NCBI GenBank assembly: GCA_037042915.1
Contig: CM073198.1
Location: 2,852,001 to 2,916,000, forward strand
Direction: 5' to 3'
Source of the DNA: Auricularia sp. M13
Taxonomy: Eukaryota > Basidiomycota > Agaricomycetes > Auriculariales > Auriculariaceae
Length of the DNA stretch: 64,000 nucleotides
A model generated the notes under the pieces. It had not been told where the DNA came from. It did no database searches and saw nothing but the letters and a program-made list of their open reading frames with translations. Both the position numbers and the translations under genes were made by a program. Of the stretch, positions 1 through 55,598 are shown piece after piece (positions within the stretch are counted from its first letter, which is position 1; every line of letters starts with the position of its first letter).

Positions 1-1800
1 TGGACCAGCCCAGGTCCTTCGACTGTAGGTGGTGGATGTAACGAAGCATCTCCGTCTCGGAGTGATGCTTGTTGAAGACCGCGTGAGGAAGGATGTCGGA
101 TGACCGCTGGACGTTGATAGGAATAGCGCTGGTAGACGGTGGCAGCAAATCAGCTGGTGACGCAGAAGCTCCGGTAAACACGGCGACAAGGTCGGTCAAG
201 TCCTTGAGGGAGACACTCTCGTCAAGCGTGACACCCAGATGTCCATTGTCGATTTGACGGAGGTTGATGCCTTGCGCGACGGCCCGCTGCTGGATAGCCG
301 CCGCTTGTTCCGGCGCCGAAATCGTTAACGTGTCGAAGAATGCGGAGTTGACGACTGTGAGCCCTGCACGTTCGACTTGTTGCTTGAGGATCTGAGTGAA
401 GGCGTGCACCTTGCCTGCGATGGCACGCAAGCCCGTGGGGCCATGGTAAACGGCATACATGGCAGCCATGTTCGCCAACAGAGCCTGCGCCGTACAAATG
501 TTGCTCGTTGCCTTCTCGCGCCTAATGTGCTGCTCGCGAGCTGGAGAGTGTCAGATAAATGCTGCAGCCATGGGTGGTTGAACGTACTCTGGAGTGCAAG
601 ACGATATGCCGGCTGACCCATCGTGTCCTTACTTAGTCCGATGAGGCGGCCTGGCATCTTGCGTTTCAGAGCGTCCTTAACGGCAAAGAAGGCGGCATGC
701 GGTCCTCCGTAGGCAGCAGGAACGCCAAACCGAGCAGAGTTACCCAACACAATATCGCACCCCATTCACCGGGCGGTTTCAGCATCGTCAGAGCAAGAAG
801 GTCCGTCGCGACGCTGAGCAGAGAGCCGTTCGCGTGTACCCGCTCCGCCAAAGCCGTATAGTCTGCAACATGGCCATTCACGTCGGGATACTGGACCAAC
901 ACTCCAGAGACTTCGGGGGTAAGCTGGTGCGAGAGGACGTCGGAGACCACGAGTTGAATGCCAAAACCTTTCGCACGCGTCCGAAGAACTGCCAGAGTTT
1001 GCGGAGCAACACCACGATCGACGACGAATGTCCGTTTCTTCGATCCGGAGACCGAGTACGACATGACCATCGCTTCCGCAGCAGCAGTGGCCTCATCCAA
1101 GAGAGACGCATTTGCGATATCCATGGCCGTGAGGACATAACCATCGTCTGGTAATTAACTAAAGACTCGAGACGACCTACAATCACTCAGCATGAGCAAT
1201 GAACATATCAGCGTAAAACACGCACCCTGCGCTATCTCTGGCTGATAAGGCGTGTAGGGTGTGTACCATGCAGGGTTTTCAAGAATCTAGATAACAGAGT
1301 CGGCCGACGCAGCACACTACCGCCCGCGGGAGAAGACGCACATTGCGAAGGATAACAGGCGGCACTACGGCGTTGTGGTAGCCCATGCCGATGTAGCTCC
1401 TGAACACCTTGTTCTGGCCCGCAAGCTCCTTCGCACGGTCCAGCAGCTCGGACTCGGTCAAGGACGGGATGGTGTCGTTGCTGACGGTGTCGGCGGCGAT
1501 ACGGATGTGCTTCGGGACTGTATCATCGACGAAGGCATCCATGGTGTCATAGCCCAGGTACTTGAGCATCTTAGCAACCTCGTGCGAGTCTGGGCCGATG
1601 TGTCTGTCCGCGAATGTGTCGAGCGGCGCGAACACGGGATGAGCATAATCCGTCGCCGTCGAGAGCGCTCGCAAGCGGGATGGAACGAAGCGGGCCTGGC
1701 CAGGGCGCCGGCCAAGCGAGAGCGAGGATAAGCTCCGCAGTGACGCGGGGAGCGAGCGTCGAGCGCGCGAGACGAGACTGGCCGCCGGTGCACCCTGCAT
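1..1800 (-). CDS. GCV2: Glycine dehydrogenase (decarboxylating), P-protein of the mitochondrial glycine cleavage system; C-terminal part beyond window
   Basis: PLP enzyme that decarboxylates glycine and passes the aminomethyl group to the H-protein in the mitochondrial matrix. Four exons are readable: 1800-1342, 1286-1226, 1177-588 and 540-1, with GT-AG introns of 47-55 nt. Exon 1 starts with an Arg/Ser-rich presequence and then the family block [17 protein letters not shown]. Exon 2 carries [19 protein letters not shown] and exon 3 [13 protein letters not shown]. Later come [20 protein letters not shown] and, in exon 4, the [14 protein letters not shown] block. The PLP-lysine region lies outside the window. 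Two one-base losses break the frame in exon 3, near 1134 (CC where CCC is expected) and 760-763 (four C on the + strand where five are expected). Otherwise the family sequence is continuous, so I favour sequence error over a pseudogene. A TATA-like element lies near 1895-1903, about 95 bp upstream of the ATG. Confidence 0.93.
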
Positions 1801-12762: not shown

Positions 12763-14032
12763 ATGGTGCGTGTCTATCGACCTCACTCTGACCTGCCGAG
12801 AAGCTGACATCTCCCTTGAATCACAGGATAACTTCGTAAACCTCGCAAAGCAGGGCCTTGACGCCTACTCGAAGTCGCATGACAATGTCAGCCAGACAGG
12901 CCAGCATGGCTCCCAGAGCGACAGCGGTGCGCTCCCACTTTCACCCAATGCGGAAGGTGGCTGGTGCTGACGATTGGCGATTGGATCTGGTATAGATGTG
13001 CGCAAGACGGGCGGCGAGGAGTACAACAGGCGCGACAGCACGCCTGAGCCCGACAGTGCGTTGCGCATCCGCACCGCTGAGATTTGTCTTGATCTTACTC
13101 GCGTTGCGCACTTCTAGTCGACGACGACGCCGCCGTGTCGCATGCCAACCAGCAGGCAGGCAGCTCAGGCGACAGCTCGCTCTTCGCCCAGGTCTGCGCA
13201 GCTGCCTATCTCTTACTATTAGCTAGCACTGCACTAACCGTTCGCTTCCCACAGGCTCTCAGCTTCGCCAAGTCTAACCGCGTACGCTCACCCGCTCTAC
13301 TTGCCGAGGGCCCAGACTGAGTGGGTGCGCATGTAGGGCGAGCACAAGCAGCCAGTGGACGAGGCCAGCGTCGTCAACGCGCACAAGGCCGCGTACCAGG
13401 ACAACAACGCTTCTGGACTCGACGCTACCAGCATGGGCAGTGCTGCCGCGCTGCAGGTGCGCACCCCGCCGGTGCCGGAACGCACTAGCTTATTCTCCGG
13501 TTGTGGCAGGTCATGAAGATGTTCACGTCTGGCGGCGGAGAGGCCAAGAGCGCCGGCACGTCGCAGAGCCAGGTGAGAGCGATTGTCTGTTGTCACGATG
13601 TGCGGAATGCTCATCTGGCCAGTTCATCGCGATGGCCATGAGTGAGGTGCGTATATGCTCTCTCGGCGTACGCTATCCGCCGACCTGTCGTGTCATACAT
13701 AGGCCTCGAAGCTCTTTGACAAGAGCGGCGGTGCAGCGTCCGGCGACAAGGTTGGCACTCTGCTCTGCTAAACGCCTCTTCCGTTACTGAATCCGTCACT
13801 GCAGCAAGATGCTGTGAACGGTGCTGCTATGACCGTCGTCAAGCTGCTTGTCCAAAGCAAGTTCAGCGGCGGAGCCATCGGTGGCAAGGACTCTGGAGGC
13901 ATCGGAGCGCTCGGATCCCTCCTCGGTGGCGGCGGTGGAGGAAGCAACCAGCTCCTCGGTATGGTGCGTAATTATCTTTAACGTTTAGAACGCGCATGTT
14001 AAAGCGATTTCCAGGCGGCCAAGTTCCTCTGA
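12763..14032 (+). CDS. Beta-flanking protein (mating-type A locus flank, beta-fg)
   Basis: Basidiomycete protein first named for its place beside the A mating-type genes; its biochemical role is unknown. The first coding exon is only the ATG (12763-12765). A 61 nt intron follows and exon 2 opens DNFVNLAKQGLDAYSKS. Later exons give DSSLFAQALSFAKSN, GEHKQPVDEASVVNAHKAAY, ALQVMKMFTSGGGEAKS, QSQFIAMAMSEASKLFDKSG, and the Gly-rich GALGSLLGGGGGGSNQLLGM. The last exon is AAKFL and a stop at 14032. The alternation of short amphipathic Ala/Ser helices and the Gly-rich tail is as I know the family. At least eight small introns are present. Its position with MIP and GCV2 nearby supports the call and marks a mating-type-A-like neighbourhood. 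Confidence 0.85.
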
Positions 14033-14449
14033 GTACAATTTCAAGAAGGATCGTGGCGCGAAATGAGCGCATGTATAAAATCTGTGTAACTTACTGTGCA
14101 ATGGACGATATTTCTTCTTTGACTGGGATCGTGGGTGTGGGAGAGGTGTGAAGTCGAAGCGGCCGCCGCCGGCGCTTGGATACGGTCTTTGCAACATGCA
14201 CACATGTCATCCCGTTGTCCAAGCTCGTGCACATGATACGTAGCGGCGAGGTCGCAAATTACAACAGCACAGGCCCCAGCCCGACATGAAGCCCCGGCAC
14301 CGGGCCGTGGCGGCCAAGAACAATGGCTGGAATACAATAGCAGACTGGGCGGCTATGCGCGCGCCACTATATTTCTCTCTCGTCCCACGGTCCCAGTTCT
14401 CTAGATACTCTCCTTCTCGTCGCCGCGCGACCGCCCGCTCGCTTCACTC
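14033..14449 (+). promoter_or_regulatory. PRM1 upstream region with TATA-like element
   Basis: No gene in this 417 bp. A CTATATTT element at 14369-14376 lies about 75 bp before the PRM1 ATG and is followed by a long CT-rich leader, the usual layout of a fungal core promoter. A second TATAAAA occurs at 14074-14080, much farther upstream. Confidence 0.5.
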
Positions 14450-17400
14450 ATGACTGACGCTCACTTTGATGCCCACCCCACGTCGCTGAAGCCCTACCTT
14501 ACGCTACCACAGCTCTTTTCCCTAACCTGGCTGGCCTACCCAGTGCTCTCACTCCTCTTCGTCGCTTTTCGCCTTCAAATATCCTCGGCCGATGCCCAGA
14601 ACGCAGTCGCAGACGCGAAGGGCTCGCTCTTGACCAGCTGCAAGGCTGCTGAAACCGCCGCTACCGGCGCCGCCAGTCTGCCCCGCTTCCTCGCACAAGG
14701 GACGAACGCGCAGATTGTCGACGCGGTCAACGGCACGCTCAACGCAGCGCGCGCAACCCTGATTCTGTCGCTCACGATCATGGAGGCGGTCATCGAGTTC
14801 ATCGTTGACATGTACCGATCGACATTCCTCTGCTTCCTCGAGCTCGTCGTCCGCGGTGGTCTCTCCATTCTGATCAGTGCCTCGGAAGAGGTATGCTGCT
14901 CTCTGCCCGCTACGCTAAAACGTCTTGCTCACCTCCAGCACAGATCACCAAGTTCCTGCAGAATACTCTCGGGGGCATCGCGTACGTCATGTCCGCCATT
15001 TTCCCACCCCATCTCACTCGTGGCTCTCAGGAATTCGATTCGCAACGATGTATCTGCTGCAAACAACGCGATCAACAAAGCCATTGACGCGATTAACAAA
15101 GTCGGCTCAATCTTCGGCGGCGGTATCAACATTCCCCAAGTCAGCCTTCCCAGCCTGGACGCGCTGGAAAATATCAAGATTCCGAATGACTTCACGAATG
15201 CCTTGATATCTCTGAATTCCACCCTTCCCACTCTTGACGAACTGCGGGATGCCATTGACAAAGTGTAAGTGGGCATGTTCCCATACTGGCCTTGCACGTA
15301 CTGAAACATGGCCATCTAGAATCGAGGTTCCATTTGAAGGCCTCAAACGCGACATCAACGAAACCTTCTCTACCATTCACTTCGACGCCTCTGTTTTGCC
15401 TGTCCCTCAGCAAAACACCCTCGCGTTTTGCTCGACTCTCGATACGTCCGTGGTTGACCGTCTGGGCGTCGACTTGCTCAAGGTCACGAAGATCGCCACC
15501 ATTCTTCTCGTTGTGCTTGCGCTGTTGCTTATTGCAGCCAACTGCCTGGTAGAATGGTACAAGTACCGTTGCCTGCAGGCGTCGTTGGAGCGGACGCGGC
15601 TGGCGTGGACGACCAACCCGACTGTTGCACACACCGGTGGAACTGGCGCGCCATCTGTGCGTTTGACGGATTACAACCTGATGGAGCTGCTCGCGGCTTC
15701 TCAGCATCCTCTCCTGACGCACCTTGCGAACCGCATCTCCGCGTTCTTCAAACTTTCGGTCTCGCAGCACATCCACGTCCGCTGGTTCTTCTCCTATGTT
15801 TTCCACCCGCCTGCTCTGGCATGTCTCCTCATCGGTCTTTTCGGCTTGATCTCTGTCGAGCTGCAGATCGCTGCGCTTGGTCCCATTGCACGTCGTTACG
15901 AGGGCGAGGTCGCTAACACAGTCGCCGACTTCACGAGCAACATCGCCGCCTCGATTAACGATTCCATGCGCAATGAAAGCACGGCGTATGCTACCGCAGT
16001 CAACGGGCAGGTGGACGGGATCCAGTCTACCATCAACGACGGCATGTTTGGCTGGGTCAACGGCACGACGTCCACGCTCAACAACACCCTCGTCACGTTC
16101 TACGCGGAGGTCCAGAATACCGTCGAGACTGTTTTCGGCGGAACCATCCTGGAAGGTCCGGTCCAGGAGTTCGTCCGCTGCCTCCTCGGAACGAAGGTGC
16201 AGGCATTCGAGAATGCTCTAACATTCTTGCACGACAACCTGCACATCAACGTGCCGCGCGTGGGCGACGATGTCTTCATGATGAACCAGGCGACCGTCGA
16301 CGAAGTCACGCGTCCCATCTCGCTGGCTGCGGTTGGCGACCAGAGCAAGGACGGCGACGACGGGGGTCTCGTGGGCCGACTCATCACGCGCTACGTGGCC
16401 TCCCTCAAGAAGGAGCGTATTATGTTCCTCATCTTCCTTGGTCTCTGGGGCTTCGTCGTCCTCATTGCCATCGGGATCATTATTTGGCATTCCTATGGAC
16501 GTCCTCTGCTGGAACGACGCCGCAAGCAGCGCTGGCAACGCGAGGCCAGAGCCTTTGACCGCGAGGGCTCGCCGTGGCTTCGCGATAGCGAGGGCGCTAA
16601 CCTTCACTCGGATGCACCGTCTCACGCTCCTCTGAACCCCACGTCCAAGGCCGTCCCTGCCGCCAACGAGAAGCTTGGCTACAGCGACGCGAAGCGGCGC
16701 AACATCAGCTGGGACTCGTTCATTGACGCGCCTGTGTCCAATGAGGCGCCGCAGCGCTCCTCTCCCATAGCCAAGAAGCTAGGGAAATATAGGCGCGGGA
16801 AGCACCTGGACGAGCAACTCGTTCCTGACGGGTACGAGCAGCCGAGCTCGGTGTCTGCGCCTGGCGACAACGACCTCCCGCCGCCTGGATGGTGGACGCG
16901 TCTGGCGGGTGTCTTCCAGCGTCAGCGCTCGTCCAGCTCTGGGGATGAGGATTGGATCGCGCCGCCGACGAACAGCCCGGCCGTCTTTTCCGCACGGCCC
17001 AATCTCACGGTCGACACGCAAGACCAGCCCGCTATGATGTCCCGGGGCCCTTCAGCGTCGGTGCCGTTCGCGCAGGGTCTTCCTCCGACTCCCAAGTTGG
17101 GCTCTGTGCCTCCGCGTCCGCCCCCGAAGACTGTGACGGGCGTCGAGCAAATGCGGTTCCCCGCGCCGCCCAATTCGACGCCGGTTCCCCTCCACCACGC
17201 GTTTGCTCGCCAGGTGCCCGCCGACACGCCGCGCTCGCCGACGGACTTCATGACGCACTCTCGCGGGTCAAGCTTCCCGACGTCCCCACCGCCCGTTCCG
17301 AGCTTCGCGTCCTTCGGTAACATGGCTGGTGTTGGCGCCCTGGGCGGAGGCTCGCCCCCGACCAGGGTCGTTTCCTGACCGCCCAACACACACATCATGC

Positions 17401-17521
17401 ACGCAGGTCCTCGCAGAGCATTGACCCCGGTCGCAAGGCCACCAACCCGTTCGCCACGCCATTTGACGAGCCGGCCGTGACACCGTTCTCGGACGCCGCG
17501 CAGGTTGCAGCCGCGACGTGA
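14450..17521 (+). CDS. PRM1: Plasma membrane fusion protein Prm1
   Basis: Integral membrane protein that promotes plasma-membrane fusion of mating cells or hyphae in fungi. ATG at 14450. The first segment is YLTLPQLFSLTWLAYPVLSL (TM1), followed by an extracellular helical region. Further spans are LTIMEAVIEFIVDMYRSTFL, VTKIATILLVVLALLLIAAN, HPPALACLLIGLFGLISVEL and IMFLIFLGLWGFVVLIAIGI. The two extracellular loops between them are rich in Asn-linked glycosylation sequons (for example NGTTSTLNNT). The cytosolic tail of about 300 residues is Pro/Ser-rich. An intron at about 17367-17406 leads to a last exon with NPFATPFDEP (an NPF motif that EH-domain endocytic proteins can bind), ending at 17521. 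The order and spacing of spans match Prm1. It lies inside the MIP/beta-fg interval. Confidence 0.9.
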
Positions 17522-18232
17522 GCGCACATGGACACACATTTATTTCCTTACGCCCGGCCGAGCCAGCTAATTATCTCCCCTCCTTATGACTTTGCTTTCA
17601 TTAGTCTCCCCCCTTTTGCTGTCTCTTGAATTTGAGCACACGGAATGTATCATCTACCGCCTGTCTGTCCCCTATGTAGCATAAATACAGAGTCTGGGAT
17701 TCTCGTGGGATTTTCTTGCGGCGTGGTCTTCAGTGAGTCGCTGCGCCTTCGAATTAAATCGAGCCAGCAATGTTCCTACATACGCCGCTCATTGCGTGAA
17801 CCCGGCGGCGTGTCCTGTCGGGTCTCTGTCAGCAGTGCAGCCCAAGCGCGGGCTGTCCCAACACATGGTCGTGGTCGACCACGCAGTATCCTTTGAGCAC
17901 CAATTGAGCACTCTCCAGGCTTCAATGTTCATGCCCGAACCTTGGATTTACACTACGGGGAGTCCTCATCAACGCATTTTCATACCCTGCGACTGTTAGG
18001 GTGGTGTTCACAAGTTCTTTTCTGCAACACGGTCACGAGTGCCGGTAGCGGTGCTATGTACGTTTGCATGGTTCCCCGCGGGAGATAAGGAGATCTAATC
18101 TCGACATGTTAGCATGCCAAAGCATGTTTGCGTGGTGGGAGTACAAATGAGCGAGACCGTTCGTTGCCGTTCGATGGATTTCCATATGACGATTGGGGAT
18201 CGTCATCGACGTGGTGCGGTGGAAGCAGACTA
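17522..18232. other. Convergent intergenic region, no gene seen
   Basis: About 710 bp between the PRM1 stop and the NR2C2AP stop. It should contain both 3' UTRs. I looked for homeodomain (WFxNxR), pheromone (CaaX) and tRNA signals on both strands and saw none. Confidence 0.55.
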
Positions 18233-18741
18233 TCATTGTGCCGCAGAGGCCGTCGCGAGGCTGGCGCCATCGATGCCATGCAGCTGGAGGTCATACAGCG
18301 TAATGCGTCCAAAAAGTCTGAGCCATCCTGGAAGACCAGCTTGATCGCGCGCACGGCGCCAATGTCGGCTGGCAGGTCGAACGACTGCTGCCTGTTCACG
18401 TCCTCGGGAAAGACGCGCGCTACGGGCTGCCAGTCCTCAGTGTCGCGCTGGACGAAGAGCGAGGTCGTACGGCCGACAAAGCCGCCCTGGAAGGTGAGCA
18501 CGAGCCTCTGGGGACGACTGGGGCTGCGAAGGCCAGCGAGACGGACGCGGGCGCGCCCTGGGATGGGTGGTGATGGGAGAGTGAGAACTGGGATTTACGC
18601 GGGTTCGGGGTATGACGCAAGAGGCCGGGAGACGGACCTCTTTAGGGGTGCCTGAGCACCAGCAAGTATCCAGATTCCCATCCACGAGGTTCCGTTTGCC
18701 ACTGGCCTTGTCCAGCGAGCTGCTCACGCTTGACGGGCCAT
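18233..18741 (-). CDS. NR2C2AP-like (nuclear receptor 2C2-associated protein) discoidin-type beta-sandwich protein
   Basis: Small single-domain protein of about 150 residues. The readable order is VSSSLDKASGKRNLVDGNLD, TCWCSGTPKEVRLP, an intron, then FQGGFVGRTTSLFVQRDTED, FPEDVNRQQSFDLPAD and AIKLVFQDGSDFFGRITLYD, with the stop at 18233. This pattern (DG..DTCW.S, FQGGF, FEDATDFFGR-like end) matches human NR2C2AP and its fungal relatives, which have a galactose-binding-like fold; the fungal function is unknown. Two one-base losses are needed: one just after the ATG at 18741 (near 18728), and one in the A-run 18311-18315, where restoring the sixth A recovers the family C-terminus. The ATG sits only 69 bp from the divergent PTP ATG. 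Confidence 0.72.
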
Positions 18742-18810
18742 TTCAGCGACCGCCGGGCCTCGTGCTACCTGCCACCAGCCACCGCTCACCTGACTCGGAC
18801 GCTGCTGTCG
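18742..18810. promoter_or_regulatory. Very short divergent promoter (NR2C2AP / PTP)
   Basis: Only 69 bp lie between the two inferred ATGs. Transcription of each gene must start within this stretch or within the other gene. No TATA element is seen. Confidence 0.4.
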
Positions 18811-20265
18811 ATGAGAGAGCGCATCGGACGCCCGCGGCTTGTCGGCGCGCTCAAGAAGCTCACGCTCACGCTCGACCAGGACGCGCTGGCCGCCGTGGGC
18901 AACTGTCCAGACTCGGCCGTGTGCGGCGCCGGAACCGTGCCCGGCGGAGGCATGTCCCACCGCTCCGAGTCTGTCTCCAGCACCGCGTCCGCGAGCACCA
19001 GCAGGACCAACAGCTCCCTCGACTCGCTCGACGACGTCGCCGACGACTACTGGCCCGCCGCACCCGCAATGAGCTCGCGCCAGGCCCTGACCTCCATGGC
19101 CAGCCACGCGCCCGGCTGGCTGCACAACGGCCACTCGCGCAGATTCGTCTCCCAGGCGCTGGATGCGCTCGATCGCCGCGACGCTATCCGCCAGCGGGCC
19201 ATGGCCCAGAGCGCCCGCCGGAGACGCTCTGGCTCGTCGTCGTCGATGTCCTCGTTCGACGCGGAGCTCGCCGCCGGCCTGCCACAGGAGCTGGCCGCCT
19301 ACTACGCCTCCGCAGAGGGCCTTGCGCCCGAGAACCAGCGCAAAAACCGCTACTGCGACATTCTGCCATTCGACCGCACTTGCGTCCATGCGCCCTATCT
19401 CAAGGGCACCGTCCATCCCGCCGGCGACTCGCGCTATCTCAATGCAAGTTTCGTGCGCGAGCTTGCTGGCGGCAAATACTGGATAGCCACCCAAGCGGCC
19501 CTGCCCTTCACCGCCCATGCATTGCTTTCTCTTCTGCTGCAGCCCGTGGAGTTGCCCAACGGGACTTCGCAGCAGGTCCGCACGATTGTGCAGTTGACAG
19601 TTAGTCAGGAATCGGGTCGCGTGAAGGCGCATGCGTATTTCCCCGATGCAGTGGGTCAGACGATGACCCTCGCCCCTGAGCCCACAGCAGGCCCAATGCC
19701 CCAGATATCGATAACGCTCCTGGCGCAGCGCGAAATCCAGGAGGCAGACGCCGTGGTCTCCACGTTACGCATATCCGCGCCCGGTGCCACGGACCACGTT
19801 TTCAACCACCTGCTCTACACCGCCTGGCCCGACCACGGCGTCCCGGCCCAGCACCAGTCGCTCGTCCGATTCGTGCGCTTGGTCGACAAGATCAACCGGG
19901 ATCCGCGCTCAATCCATCCCGTCTTCCCGCCAGCACCCGTGCCGCTGCAGGCGAGCAAGGACCCGAACGCATACCCGCCCGTCATCGTCGGCTGCTCGGC
20001 CGGAGTGGGCAGGACTGGCGCATTCATCGCCATCTCGTCGTTATTACGCGCGCATAACCTGCTCGACGAGGATAGTAAGCCGCAGACGCCGGGCTTCAAG
20101 CCACCTGGGTTGCCCGCCTCGCCGCTCGGGCCCATGGACCCCGTCTTCCAGAAAGACATGGTCGTCGCCGAGGTCGACTCGCTCCGCGAGCAGCGCAGTA
20201 GAATGGTACAGACCCAAGGACAGATGATGTTCGTGTATGACGCTGTTGCGTCCGCTTTTCAATGA
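18811..20265 (+). CDS. Protein tyrosine phosphatase, classical PTP domain
   Basis: Single-exon gene of about 484 residues. I chose the ATG at 18811 because the frame's earlier start is not an ATG and would collide with the divergent gene. The N-terminal 170 residues are Ser/Ala-rich, with an alpha-helical LGALKKLTLTL-like start. The PTP domain has KNRYCDILPFDRTCV, DSRYLNASFVRELAGGKYWI (substrate-loop region), the WPD loop TAWPDHGVPAQHQSLVRF, and the P-loop VGCSAGVGRTGAFIAISSLL with catalytic Cys at codon 19993-19995. The Q-loop region QTQGQMMFVYDAV closes the domain. The usual His before the catalytic Cys is Gly here (VGCSAG instead of HCSAG). A Pro-rich insert (PPAPVPLQASKDPNAYPP) precedes the P-loop. 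Substrates cannot be told from sequence. Confidence 0.92.
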   Translation: MRERIGRPRLVGALKKLTLTLDQDALAAVGNCPDSAVCGAGTVPGGGMSHRSESVSSTASASTSRTNSSLDSLDDVADDYWPAAPAMSSRQALTSMASHAPGWLHNGHSRRFVSQALDALDRRDAIRQRAMAQSARRRRSGSSSSMSSFDAELAAGLPQELAAYYASAEGLAPENQRKNRYCDILPFDRTCVHAPYLKGTVHPAGDSRYLNASFVRELAGGKYWIATQAALPFTAHALLSLLLQPVELPNGTSQQVRTIVQLTVSQESGRVKAHAYFPDAVGQTMTLAPEPTAGPMPQISITLLAQREIQEADAVVSTLRISAPGATDHVFNHLLYTAWPDHGVPAQHQSLVRFVRLVDKINRDPRSIHPVFPPAPVPLQASKDPNAYPPVIVGCSAGVGRTGAFIAISSLLRAHNLLDEDSKPQTPGFKPPGLPASPLGPMDPVFQKDMVVAEVDSLREQRSRMVQTQGQMMFVYDAVASAFQ

Positions 20266-20429
20266 GACCCCATCCCAACCGGACAATGTCAATCAGCATC
20301 GCTTCCCTCTCGCTTTCCCCGCTCGTATTTCTCTGGGTATTATCATTGTACAGTAGAAGAGTGAAAACACTGTATAACGAGACTTGTGTGCCATAAACGA
20401 ATCGCATGCCTCCTCATCCACTATGTCTA

Positions 20430-22882
20430 TCAGTGTGAATGTGCTGACCATCCTTGACCTGAACCGTCGTCCTCTACACGCCACTGCCCGACGAGCTTCA
20501 TCGCAGCCTCGTCTCCGCTCTCCAGCTCCGGCATATCCAAGACGGCGGCCAGCATTGCCCATGGATCCTTCCCGCCACCGTATCGAAGGACTTCTCTCCG
20601 CAACTTCTCCCCTGCGCTGCGCTCCAACGGCGATTGCGCAAAAACACGTTCCCATACTGCCCGGGCAAGCGCCTTGTCGAAGATGTAGGAGTAGTACGTC
20701 GCTGCATAGCCATATAAGTGACCGAACCGCGTCTGCCAGCTTGTACCCTGCGCGTATGGCAGGACGCCCCACTCGTCCTGTAGGCGGGCAAATATGGCCG
20801 TCGAGTCGAACGAAGGCGACGACGCGAGCGGGGAATGTACAACTGGTCCAGCGTCGCGAGAATGATCTGCGAGTGCGAATCTATCGCTGCACCAATTGCT
20901 AGGTCCGAGTTGGGAGAGCGCATGTGTACCATAGAGTGCGATTCGGGGCGGCGGAAGAGCGATAAGACGTCGGGGGACGAGAGGAAGAAATGCTCCATGA
21001 GCAGGGATGGCAGTTCGACAAAGTCGGTGGCGCAGCGTGTGCCGCAAACGTTTTGGTAGTCGGTGCGGCCAATCATTGCTGAAAAATGTTAGGCACAAGA
21101 GACAAAAAATGGTACGAAATCTCACAATGGACGGCGTGACCCATCTCATGCACAGTCGTCATCACGTCCGACCACTCGAGGTTGGCAGCACCTGCCTGTG
21201 TTGGCTGCGGGAAGTCGCACAGCAGCACCACCACGGGGAGCTGGTATCTGCCCGGTCGACCGCGTACAGTGTGTTCTGGCACTTGCAGTCCTGCGTCGGG
21301 TTCTGGAGGGCGAGCGCCGTCCACATAATCGCCTTGAGCATCATCGTCGTCCACTCGACGCGAACATCGCACGGTGTAATGCGCGGCTCCAGAAGCCTTG
21401 CCCGGTCTGCTGAATAAGTCCGCATAAATATAGCCTACGAGACCTTCGTCCTCGTCGATGACCTCCAGCTTGCGGACGTCCTCGTCCCAGACTTCACCCG
21501 GCTGCAGGCCAGCCGGTCGTAGAGATATGCCGAAGAGATGGGTAAACAGGCGTGAGAGTCCATAGAAGACAGTACCCGGTGTGAGATTGGGCAGAGACAC
21601 GGGAGCAGCAGTTGAAACGCGCGGCGAGTAGAACTCTCGATCCCACGCATACACCGGTGGCGTCTCCGACAACCCTAGATACTGCCGCTTTCGCTCGGCT
21701 ATGGAGCGTACGTCGGCAAGAGCATGTGGACGTGATTGGTACAGCTGAGCCTGGAGGAAGGTCATGACATTTTCTATGAAAGTTGAATCGTCAGGAACAT
21801 CGCAAAGCAGATGAGAGCAGACAGACCTGGCGTTTTGGTCATTTTATCATCCAACGCAACATGCGCATAGCTTGGTTTGCCAGTCAGACTGGCCAGTTGT
21901 GCCCGCGTCTTGAGCAGCTTCTCCAGCACGTCGATTTCCTGTTGGGAACTCGAATTGGTCGCGACATATAGTGCCCGCCGAGTGGCCTCATCGGGAACAG
22001 AAGCCATGATCATGCGAGCCTCTGACGTGCCAGGGTAGACTGGAACCGTGTTGCTCGTCCGCGCTGGCAAACGCAATCGGCTCAGCAGCCCGGCAGTGCC
22101 AGTCTCGCGCAGCGCAGAAGCCGGAAGTGAAACGGCGGGTCGAGGAGCACTGGCCTGGTTGACAAAGTCACGTCCCAACGAAAATATCTCGGACGACAAT
22201 TGAACGAAGCGTGTCCGTAGGTGGGGTGGCAGGTCTATGCCCGACTTCTCAAAATCACGCCAGAAAATGAGAGCAGTCTCGCGTGCCTCCGGTGTGAGGT
22301 TGGACGCGATGTCCGGCGTAGAAAGCACAGTCTTGAGCACCTGTGAGAATGTCATAAATATATAGGGAGCTGGAAGTGCAAAATACTGACATTATAAAGA
22401 TCGACGTGAGTGTTGAGGACGTTCATATACTCGTACAAGGTTGCATACGCGTCGTTGGCGGCGTCAATCCAGCGCGGGTCGGGATGCGCATGCCTGACGA
22501 GTTCTGCAAGGTCTATAACACCGCATAGCACATTGCTCAAGCGGTCCAGATTCTTTACGACTTTGCGCAACTCTGTGGCTGAGCCCGGAGCGCGTAATAT
22601 TCGATCAACCAGAGACTGAGCTTTCTTCAGCGCTGCGTCGGCCACTTGTCGAAAGGCGGACGGGTGTGTGAGCGTAGGCTGGAGGAAAAGACCAGTTGTG
22701 CCAGCAGCGTAGGTGCGAAACCAGCTTTTAGTTTGTGGCCGGTCGAAGAAATCTACGATGCTCTCGTCATCTTGAGACGGTGGCCGTACAGCTGCGGAGG
22801 ACGCATTGCGGTTTCGAGGGGTCACAGGACATATTCGTCTGCGCGGGACTGCAAGCCTTGCAAGCCTGCGAGTCGTGAGCAT
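20430..22882 (-). CDS. MIP: Mitochondrial intermediate peptidase (M3 metallopeptidase)
   Basis: Zinc oligopeptidase that removes an octapeptide from MPP-cleaved mitochondrial precursors. First ATG at 22882 ([20 protein letters not shown]), a typical Arg-rich presequence. The N-terminal exon has [20 protein letters not shown]. Middle exons carry [51 protein letters not shown] and [17 protein letters not shown]. The catalytic exon has [14 protein letters not shown], which contains the HExxH zinc site. The C-terminal exon covers [20 protein letters not shown] and [20 protein letters not shown], and the gene ends at 20430. Length and order match fungal Oct1/MIP. MIP is the best-conserved marker beside the HD (A) mating-type genes of Agaricomycetes. 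Here its neighbours are the PTP gene (convergent) and a WHIM1 protein gene. Confidence 0.93.
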
Positions 22883-54334: not shown

Positions 54335-55598
54335 ATGGCAAAGGATTACTGCTGGTACGCATTGTGAGCACGCCCGCGGCCTGCCTAAACCCGCCTGTTT
54401 CAGTTGCGCCATCCCCATAATCAACTTTGGAATATACGCCACGCTTGTTGAGCAATTCGTCGTCGCCATTGTCGCAGGAACCCTCGCCATTGGGACTCCA
54501 TCTAGTGCGTATTCCTCATCCCAGCGACGATGCCCTATAGCTCATTGCCTCGCTCGCAGTTGTATCCTACAACGCGCCGTCTTTCGGGCCCTTAATCTTC
54601 GCCGCAGCATGCTATGTCCTGGCCGTTGCTCAGATATTTGGCTTCATTGCCGTTCACAAGCAGAAGGCGGCTCTGTTTTCGCGCTATACCCCGCTGCACG
54701 GCTTCCTGACCCTTGTCGTATTCGCCATTGCCGGCGCATTCATCGGCATCTCCGCCTCTAATCACAGCAAGGCCGTTGTCAGCTGCCAAAAGAACTTCTA
54801 CGCTACCCCAGACGACCCGGAAGGTACCAAGGATGAGGCCAATGCCGTGTGCAACATCTTCGCTTGGGTCGGCATTGGTTGCATGGGCGGTCTCTGGGTT
54901 CTGCTGGGCATTTTGCAGGTGCGCTCAGCTGTTGTCAGAGCGTCGCGGGTCCCTCACCATTCCCATTGCAGATCTACTTGTATACTGTCATATCTGCCTA
55001 TGGCTCAACGCAGCGGGCTGATAAAGCCAAGTACTACAACATTCAGAATGCGAACCAACAGGTCGCTGGTGGTCCGAACGATATACAGCTTGCGGAGCGC
55101 AGCGGGAAGGCTTCTGACCCGTGGGACACCCGGCCGTCAACCTCCGCAGACGTCGGCGGTGCTGCGGGCCGCGGTGCTCACGGCAGGCAGAACAGCTACG
55201 GTCAGCAACCTCCACACGGAAGACAGAATAGCTATGGCCAGCCGCAACCGCACGGGCGTCAGAACAGCTATGGCCAACCGCAAGCTGCATATCAGGTCTC
55301 TGGTGCCCTTCCGCCTGGTGCAGCCGCACCACGCAGCCGCCAGCCCACGGTAGACACCTACAGCGATCCCTATGCCCCCCAGCAACCATACGGCGGCCAG
55401 CAGTATGGATACGACTACAACGCGTACGGCGCTTATCCACCAGCGCACGTTGCTACAGAGGCGCCGACACCACGGGTCGGCGCGTACGGGCTGCCCCAGC
55501 GCGCAGATTCGGTGGCCACAGGCGGCGCAACGCTTGTGGCTACGCCTGAGCAGACAAAGTACCACCCTGGTGCGTCAGCTTTGTATGCGCGAATTTAG
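54335..55598 (+). CDS. MARVEL-like four-span membrane protein with Gln/Tyr-rich tail
   Basis: ATG at 54335 (MAKDYCWYAF across the first intron). Membrane spans: CAIPIINFGIYATLVEQFVV, a SYNAPSFGPLIFAAACYVLA block, HGFLTLVVFAIAGAFIGISA and NIFAWVGIGCMGGLWVLLGI. A conserved-looking luminal loop (SCQKNFYATPDDPEGTKDEA) lies between spans 3 and 4. The cytosolic tail of about 220 residues holds three direct 12-residue repeats (HGRQNSYGQPQP type, 55179-55286) and a low-complexity region rich in Gln, Tyr, Pro and Gly (QQPYGGQQYGYDYNAYGAYP), ending YHPGASALYARI at 55598. The four-TM arrangement and tail are typical of fungal MARVEL/Nce102-like proteins of plasma-membrane domains; the exact family is uncertain. 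Confidence 0.8.
55179..55286 (+). repeat. Three direct 36 bp repeats encoding HGRQNSYGQxxx
   Basis: Each unit encodes 12 residues beginning HGRQNSYGQ. The three units differ at synonymous and last-codon positions (QPP, PQP, PQA ends), so they are not a recent perfect duplication. Confidence 0.85.

What the first reader, a model, noticed from the sequence alone, without database searches (positions are those of the whole stretch)
12763..22882. MIP and beta-flanking gene linked, but no homeodomain mating-type genes between them
In many Agaricomycetes the HD1/HD2 genes of the A locus lie between or right beside MIP and beta-fg, with glycine dehydrogenase also close by. Here GCV2, beta-fg and MIP sit within 23 kb, but the 6.4 kb between beta-fg and MIP holds PRM1, an NR2C2AP-like gene and a tyrosine phosphatase. 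I saw no WFxNxR homeodomain motif on either strand anywhere in the window. The HD pair may have moved, been lost, or lie just outside.
Basis: partly seen in the sequence, partly recalled or inferred. Interest (0 to 1): 0.75.

Follow-up and report, generated by a model that had tools for sequence, protein, structure and literature searches.

The report
Known two-part mushroom mating-type A region
The stretch carries marker genes that sit near the mating-type genes of mushrooms; the mating-type genes themselves lie about 50 kb to the left, just outside the window, as already published for wood-ear mushrooms, so the finding is ordinary.

Summary
Glycine dehydrogenase (GCV2), beta-fg, PRM1-like, NR2C2AP-like, a tyrosine phosphatase and MIP lie in that order, and no homeodomain (HD) mating-type gene was found between beta-fg and MIP or elsewhere in the window. 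The HD genes are not lost. Two divergent HD1/HD2 pairs lie on the same contig, left of the window: pair 2 at C6:2,809,500-2,813,674 (38 kb from the window edge, about 51 kb from beta-fg, 59 kb from MIP) and pair 1 at C6:2,768,419-2,772,727, 36.8 kb further left. The genome matches the published Auricularia sp. Qinling M13 assembly. The same layout is published for Auricularia heimuer: two HD pairs 36-41 kb apart, mip and beta-fg on one side, beta-fg 51.9 kb away, mip 6.3 kb beyond (PMC7151073). Pheromone-receptor matches were found only on another contig (C7). Verdict: real, ordinary, already described for the genus. The HD1 helix-3 variant is a small side observation.

The parts
1..1800 (-). 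5' part of the glycine dehydrogenase (GCV2) gene, which runs on to the left of the window (model C6:2850567-2853800)
   Evidence: GDC-P 1.4e-41 on window:8-538 and GcvP2_C 1.8e-33 on L026:8763-9233; gene model
   Evidence: DUF7721 82.2 bits against cut-off 27; position and spacing as published for A. heimuer
14450..17521 (+). PRM1-like membrane protein, 955 aa model
   Evidence: gene model, sequence printed; no informative Pfam match; name rests on recall
18298..18733 (-). NR2C2AP-like gene, two exon readings seen by eye, ends approximate
   Evidence: six-frame translation, places of four peptides; no Pfam match on the ORFs tried there; name rests on recall
18811..20265 (+). protein tyrosine phosphatase, single exon, 484 aa
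   Evidence: Y_phosphatase 3.4e-39; 81% identical to Auricularia subglabra protein
   Evidence: Peptidase_M3 on 3 of 3 exons tested: 6.7e-40, 2.1e-9, 1e-23

Best explanation
The window holds the one-sided flank of an ordinary mating-type A (HD) region of Auricularia. Two HD1/HD2 pairs, each gene with an open reading frame over its predicted exons, lie left of the window on the same contig, and beta-fg and MIP lie together about 51 and 59 kb to the right of the nearer pair. By the established mechanism for basidiomycete HD genes (general knowledge), HD1 and HD2 proteins from different mating partners form a heterodimer that switches on the dikaryon programme; beta-fg, MIP, PRM1-like and the phosphatase are linked bystanders. 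Shown here: gene content, order, distances, HD1/HD2 identity by homology. Inferred: function and compatibility.
For: Spliced N-terminal parts of both HD2 proteins match Homeodomain (PF00046) at 2.8e-13 and 1.1e-10 and the full models carry WFQNRR. HD1 of pair 2 (519 aa of its main exon) has four relatives, among them 'Homeodomain mating-type protein HD1-2' of A. heimuer (95% over 66% of the query) and two HD1 proteins of A. auricula-judae (71% and 61%). HD1 of pair 1 has five, among them HD1-1 of A. auricula-judae (52% over the full length), HD1-1 of A. heimuer (63% over 43%) and an Exidia glandulosa protein (34%). Each pair is divergent, with 175 and 90 bp between the predicted starts. Distances here: 36.8 kb between pairs, about 51 kb to beta-fg, about 59 kb to MIP, 6.4 kb beta-fg to MIP; in A. 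heimuer A14-8: 36.7, 51.9, 59.5 and 6.3 kb (PMC7151073). Genome searches with two HD1 relatives found only these two HD1 genes. Assembly size, contig number and longest contig equal those given for Auricularia sp. Qinling M13 (PMC12113221; contig length).
Against: The HD1 pieces do not reach Pfam's Homeobox_KN cut-off (17.4 and 21.9 bits against 24; single exons were given, that of pair 2 cut just inside the domain), and the named A. heimuer HD1-1 (P0128) has no homeodomain match either. Mating_C and Mating_N gave no match in this genome (those searches rang in no control either); of the relatives only P0124, from an unnamed source, passes the Mating_N cut-off. Gene models are home-made; the HD1-2 C-terminus and one HD2-2 intron are uncertain. 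No expression or mating data.
Confidence: 0.95

Rival explanations
1. The HD genes were lost from this region, or moved to another chromosome, leaving only the flanking markers.
For: No HD gene in the window by tblastn with 13 HD proteins; the classical neighbours beta-fg and MIP have other genes between them.
Against: Two HD1/HD2 pairs on the same contig, and no HD1 match elsewhere in the genome at E up to 0.01 (only the best candidates are scored). The other homeobox hits lie in 10 fetched loci in which no HD protein matched at E 1e-3.
Confidence: 0.02
2. The layout is an assembly error: a wrong join between beta-fg and MIP, or between the HD pairs and beta-fg.
For: The M13 strain has 2.34% heterozygosity (PMC12113221), so the contig may be a mosaic of two nuclei; reads could not be examined.
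Against: No N in the window, and the spacing is close to that published for A. heimuer A14-8, with conserved synteny reported in A. subglabra.
Confidence: 0.03

Closest known systems
MAT-A of Auricularia heimuer (PMC7151073, J Fungi 2020; passages seen)
   Same: Two HD1/HD2 pairs 36-41 kb apart; mip and beta-fg together on one side, as also reported there for A. subglabra; beta-fg about 52 kb from the nearer pair; 6.3 kb between beta-fg and mip.
   Different: Another strain (Auricularia sp. Qinling M13) with other HD alleles, HD1-1 above all: against A. heimuer P0128 about 46% in residues 1-234 and 63% in 383-672. The four distances differ by under about 1 kb from strain A14-8; strain Dai 13782 differs more (41.16 and 67.6 kb).
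matA of Flammulina velutipes (PMC3140503; abstract seen)
   Same: HD genes split over two subloci 73 kb apart.
   Different: Three HD genes rather than four; according to PMC7151073 mip and beta-fg flank the HD genes there.
A locus of Coprinopsis cinerea and similar mushrooms (as summarised in PMC7151073)
   Same: Same marker genes (mip, beta-fg) beside HD mating-type genes.
   Different: There mip and beta-fg flank the HD genes and mip is within 1 kb; here both lie on one side, 51-59 kb away.

Membership tests
Basidiomycete HD mating-type (A) locus | HD2 gene with a canonical homeodomain | tested here: met
   2 of 2 HD2 proteins match PF00046 over cut-off; WFQNRR in 2 of 2
Basidiomycete HD mating-type (A) locus | HD1 gene with a homeodomain | tested here: inconclusive
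   Homology to named HD1 mating proteins is clear, but the Homeobox_KN score of the exons given is below cut-off and helix 3 is atypical
Basidiomycete HD mating-type (A) locus | Divergent HD1/HD2 pairing with a short shared upstream region | tested here: met
   2 of 2 pairs: 175 and 90 bp between predicted starts
Basidiomycete HD mating-type (A) locus | Linkage to MIP and beta-fg | tested here: met
   Same contig, about 59 and 51 kb from pair 2
Basidiomycete HD mating-type (A) locus | High allelic divergence and segregation with mating type | not testable with these tools
   One haplotype found; HD1-1 is 45-52% identical to three Auricularia proteins aligned over 83-100%, which fits but is no population test
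Basidiomycete HD mating-type (A) locus | Pheromone-receptor locus unlinked to it (tetrapolar layout) | tested here: met
   5 of 5 STE3 matches at E up to 0.1 lie on C7, in two places about 41 kb apart, a different contig from C6; whether it still controls mating is not testable, and A. heimuer is speculated to be bipolar

The most novel reading that the evidence does not exclude
In Auriculariales the HD1 mating protein has lost the canonical homeodomain recognition helix: 11 of 11 HD1 sequences (2 here, 9 from the database, both subfamilies, Exidia included) have W[LM]NxxR, with the Asn one position early, and 0 of 11 have WFxNxR, while 2 of 2 HD2 proteins keep WFQNRR. HD1 would then serve mainly as partner and activator, with DNA contact left to HD2.
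Probability: 0.35. Interest if true: 0.3.

Novelty: already known. Interest (0 to 1): 0.1.

Why it matters
It gives the MAT-A map of the Qinling M13 genome, whose paper holds neither 'mating' nor 'homeodomain' in its main text, which is of use for breeding markers. It also shows that motif scans on unspliced sequence miss HD genes in this lineage, so 'no WFxNxR found' should not be read as loss. Biologically it repeats a published arrangement.

Tried and rejected
Pfam Mating_C and Mating_N over the whole genome gave nothing and rang in no control, so they are not used as evidence. The Homeobox_KN hit on C3 and the other PF00046 hits were considered as moved HD genes and set aside: 2 of the 13 PF00046 matches, C6:2769877 and C6:2810864, are the HD2 genes of the pairs; the other 11 and the C3 hit lie in 10 fetched loci in which no HD protein matched at E 1e-3. 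The Flavi_NS2A and Mating_C (on an ORC gene) matches are below cut-off and were taken as chance. The E 0.009 tblastn match of P0126 at window 55035-55154 lies outside the homeodomain and was taken as chance. Polyporales was my first guess for the organism (search terms); the 81% match to A. subglabra and the assembly figures corrected it. The paper on A. heimuer Hei29 (PMC11856363, passages) has no mating text and other assembly figures. Polarity of the layout (ancestral or derived) was not tested.

Full report
Where the window lies. The window is G000:C6:2852001-2916000 of a 52,096,326-base assembly in 14 contigs. Its tyrosine phosphatase is 81% identical to the Auricularia subglabra protein. 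C1 is 9,420,553 bases long. The paper on Auricularia sp. Qinling M12 and M13 gives M13 as 52.10 Mbp, 14 contigs, longest contig 9,420,553 bp (PMC12113221, passages seen). The window is therefore taken to be from Auricularia sp. Qinling M13.

What is in the window. Glycine dehydrogenase crosses the left edge. Then come beta-fg (DUF7721, 82 bits), a PRM1-like membrane protein, an NR2C2AP-like gene on the minus strand (read by eye), a tyrosine phosphatase and MIP on the minus strand. Beta-fg to MIP is 6,448 bp. The names PRM1 and NR2C2AP rest on recall; the link between DUF7721 and beta-fg rests on position.

No HD gene in the window. tblastn with 13 HD proteins (four of this genome, nine relatives) at E up to 10 gave 47 matches, the best at 0.009 and outside the homeodomain, the next at 0.27. 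Whole-genome searches at E up to 0.01 with P0126 (HD1-1 type) and P0121 (HD1-2 type) gave four matches each, 8 of 8 on C6 at 2.7706-2.7726 Mb and 2.8116-2.8135 Mb. Those searches score only the best candidates (6 of 6 each), and no such search was run with HD2.

Where the HD genes are. Pair 1: HD2 at C6:2768419-2770421 (minus) and HD1 at C6:2770597-2772727 (plus). Pair 2: HD2 at C6:2809500-2811495 (minus) and HD1 at C6:2811586 to about 2813674 (plus), where the last stretch is placed by a tblastn match of P0121's C-terminus. The HD2 proteins match the Homeodomain profile over its cut-off. The HD1 proteins match named Auricularia HD1 mating proteins, though their exons stay below the Homeobox_KN cut-off. 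The pairs are divergent, with 175 and 90 bp between starts. They are 36.8 kb apart, and the nearer is about 51 kb from beta-fg and 59 kb from MIP. The two pairs have diverged far: HD1s are 26-27% and HD2s 34% identical over the aligned parts.

Known already. The A. heimuer paper (PMC7151073, passages seen) reports two HD1/HD2 pairs 36-41 kb apart, mip and beta-fg on one side of the locus and not flanking it, beta-fg 51.913 kb from HD1-2, mip 6.32 kb further, mip-to-HD distances of 59.5 and 67.6 kb in two strains, and conserved synteny with A. subglabra, where mip and beta-fg are also on one side. M13 matches strain A14-8 within about 1 kb at each of the four distances; Dai 13782 is further off. 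The paper speculates that A. heimuer is bipolar, with receptors no longer controlling mating. Here 5 of 5 STE3 matches are on C7, at about 1.495 and 1.537 Mb, a different contig from C6.

Why the motif scan failed. In both HD2 gene models an intron begins right after the codon of the W of WFQNRR, so no unspliced frame shows the motif. In HD1 the motif is absent: 11 of 11 HD1 proteins have W[LM]NxxR and 0 of 11 have WFxNxR. The 11 are related, and HD1_2 and P0122 are nearly the same over 467 residues, so they are fewer independent cases; P0124 comes from an unnamed source. A regex of the same kind over the 194 kb that hold both pairs, and over 10 further loci, returned nothing. I did not find this variant named in one search for it (listing only), which is weak evidence that it is unreported. 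That HD1 leaves DNA contact to HD2 is an inference.

Limits. One haplotype only: M13 is reported with 2.34% heterozygosity, yet the two genome searches found one copy of each HD1 gene, so the partner nucleus's A alleles are not in the assembly or were not detected. Function is inferred from the family. Gene models come from a small home-made predictor and hand-checked splice sites. Papers: passages or abstracts only were seen, no whole text.

Noticed in passing
L018:8597-9691 (HD1 of pair 1), L023:2-1558 (HD1 of pair 2): Helix 3 of HD1 reads W[LM]NxxR in 11 of 11 HD1 proteins examined, not WFxNxR; the Homeobox_KN profile matches these exons only over positions 2-24 of 40, below its cut-off.
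   Followed up: partly
G000:C7:1494922-1495901 and C7:1536717-1537722: STE3-type pheromone-receptor matches in two places about 41 kb apart and in opposite orientation, the likely B locus, on another contig.
   Followed up: no
L023:2215-4889 and L022:5812-7190: A glycogenin-like glycosyltransferase (Glyco_transf_8) sits beside HD1 of pair 2, and an ORC subunit with an adjoining NDK-like reading (by eye) beside HD2 of pair 2.
   Followed up: no
whole genome G000: Only one copy of each HD1 gene was found although the strain is reported with 2.34% heterozygosity; the second A haplotype seems collapsed or left out of the assembly.
   Followed up: partly
G000:C6:2135025-2135975: Three separate homeodomain-like matches within 1 kb; no mating HD protein matches there at E 1e-3.
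   Followed up: partly
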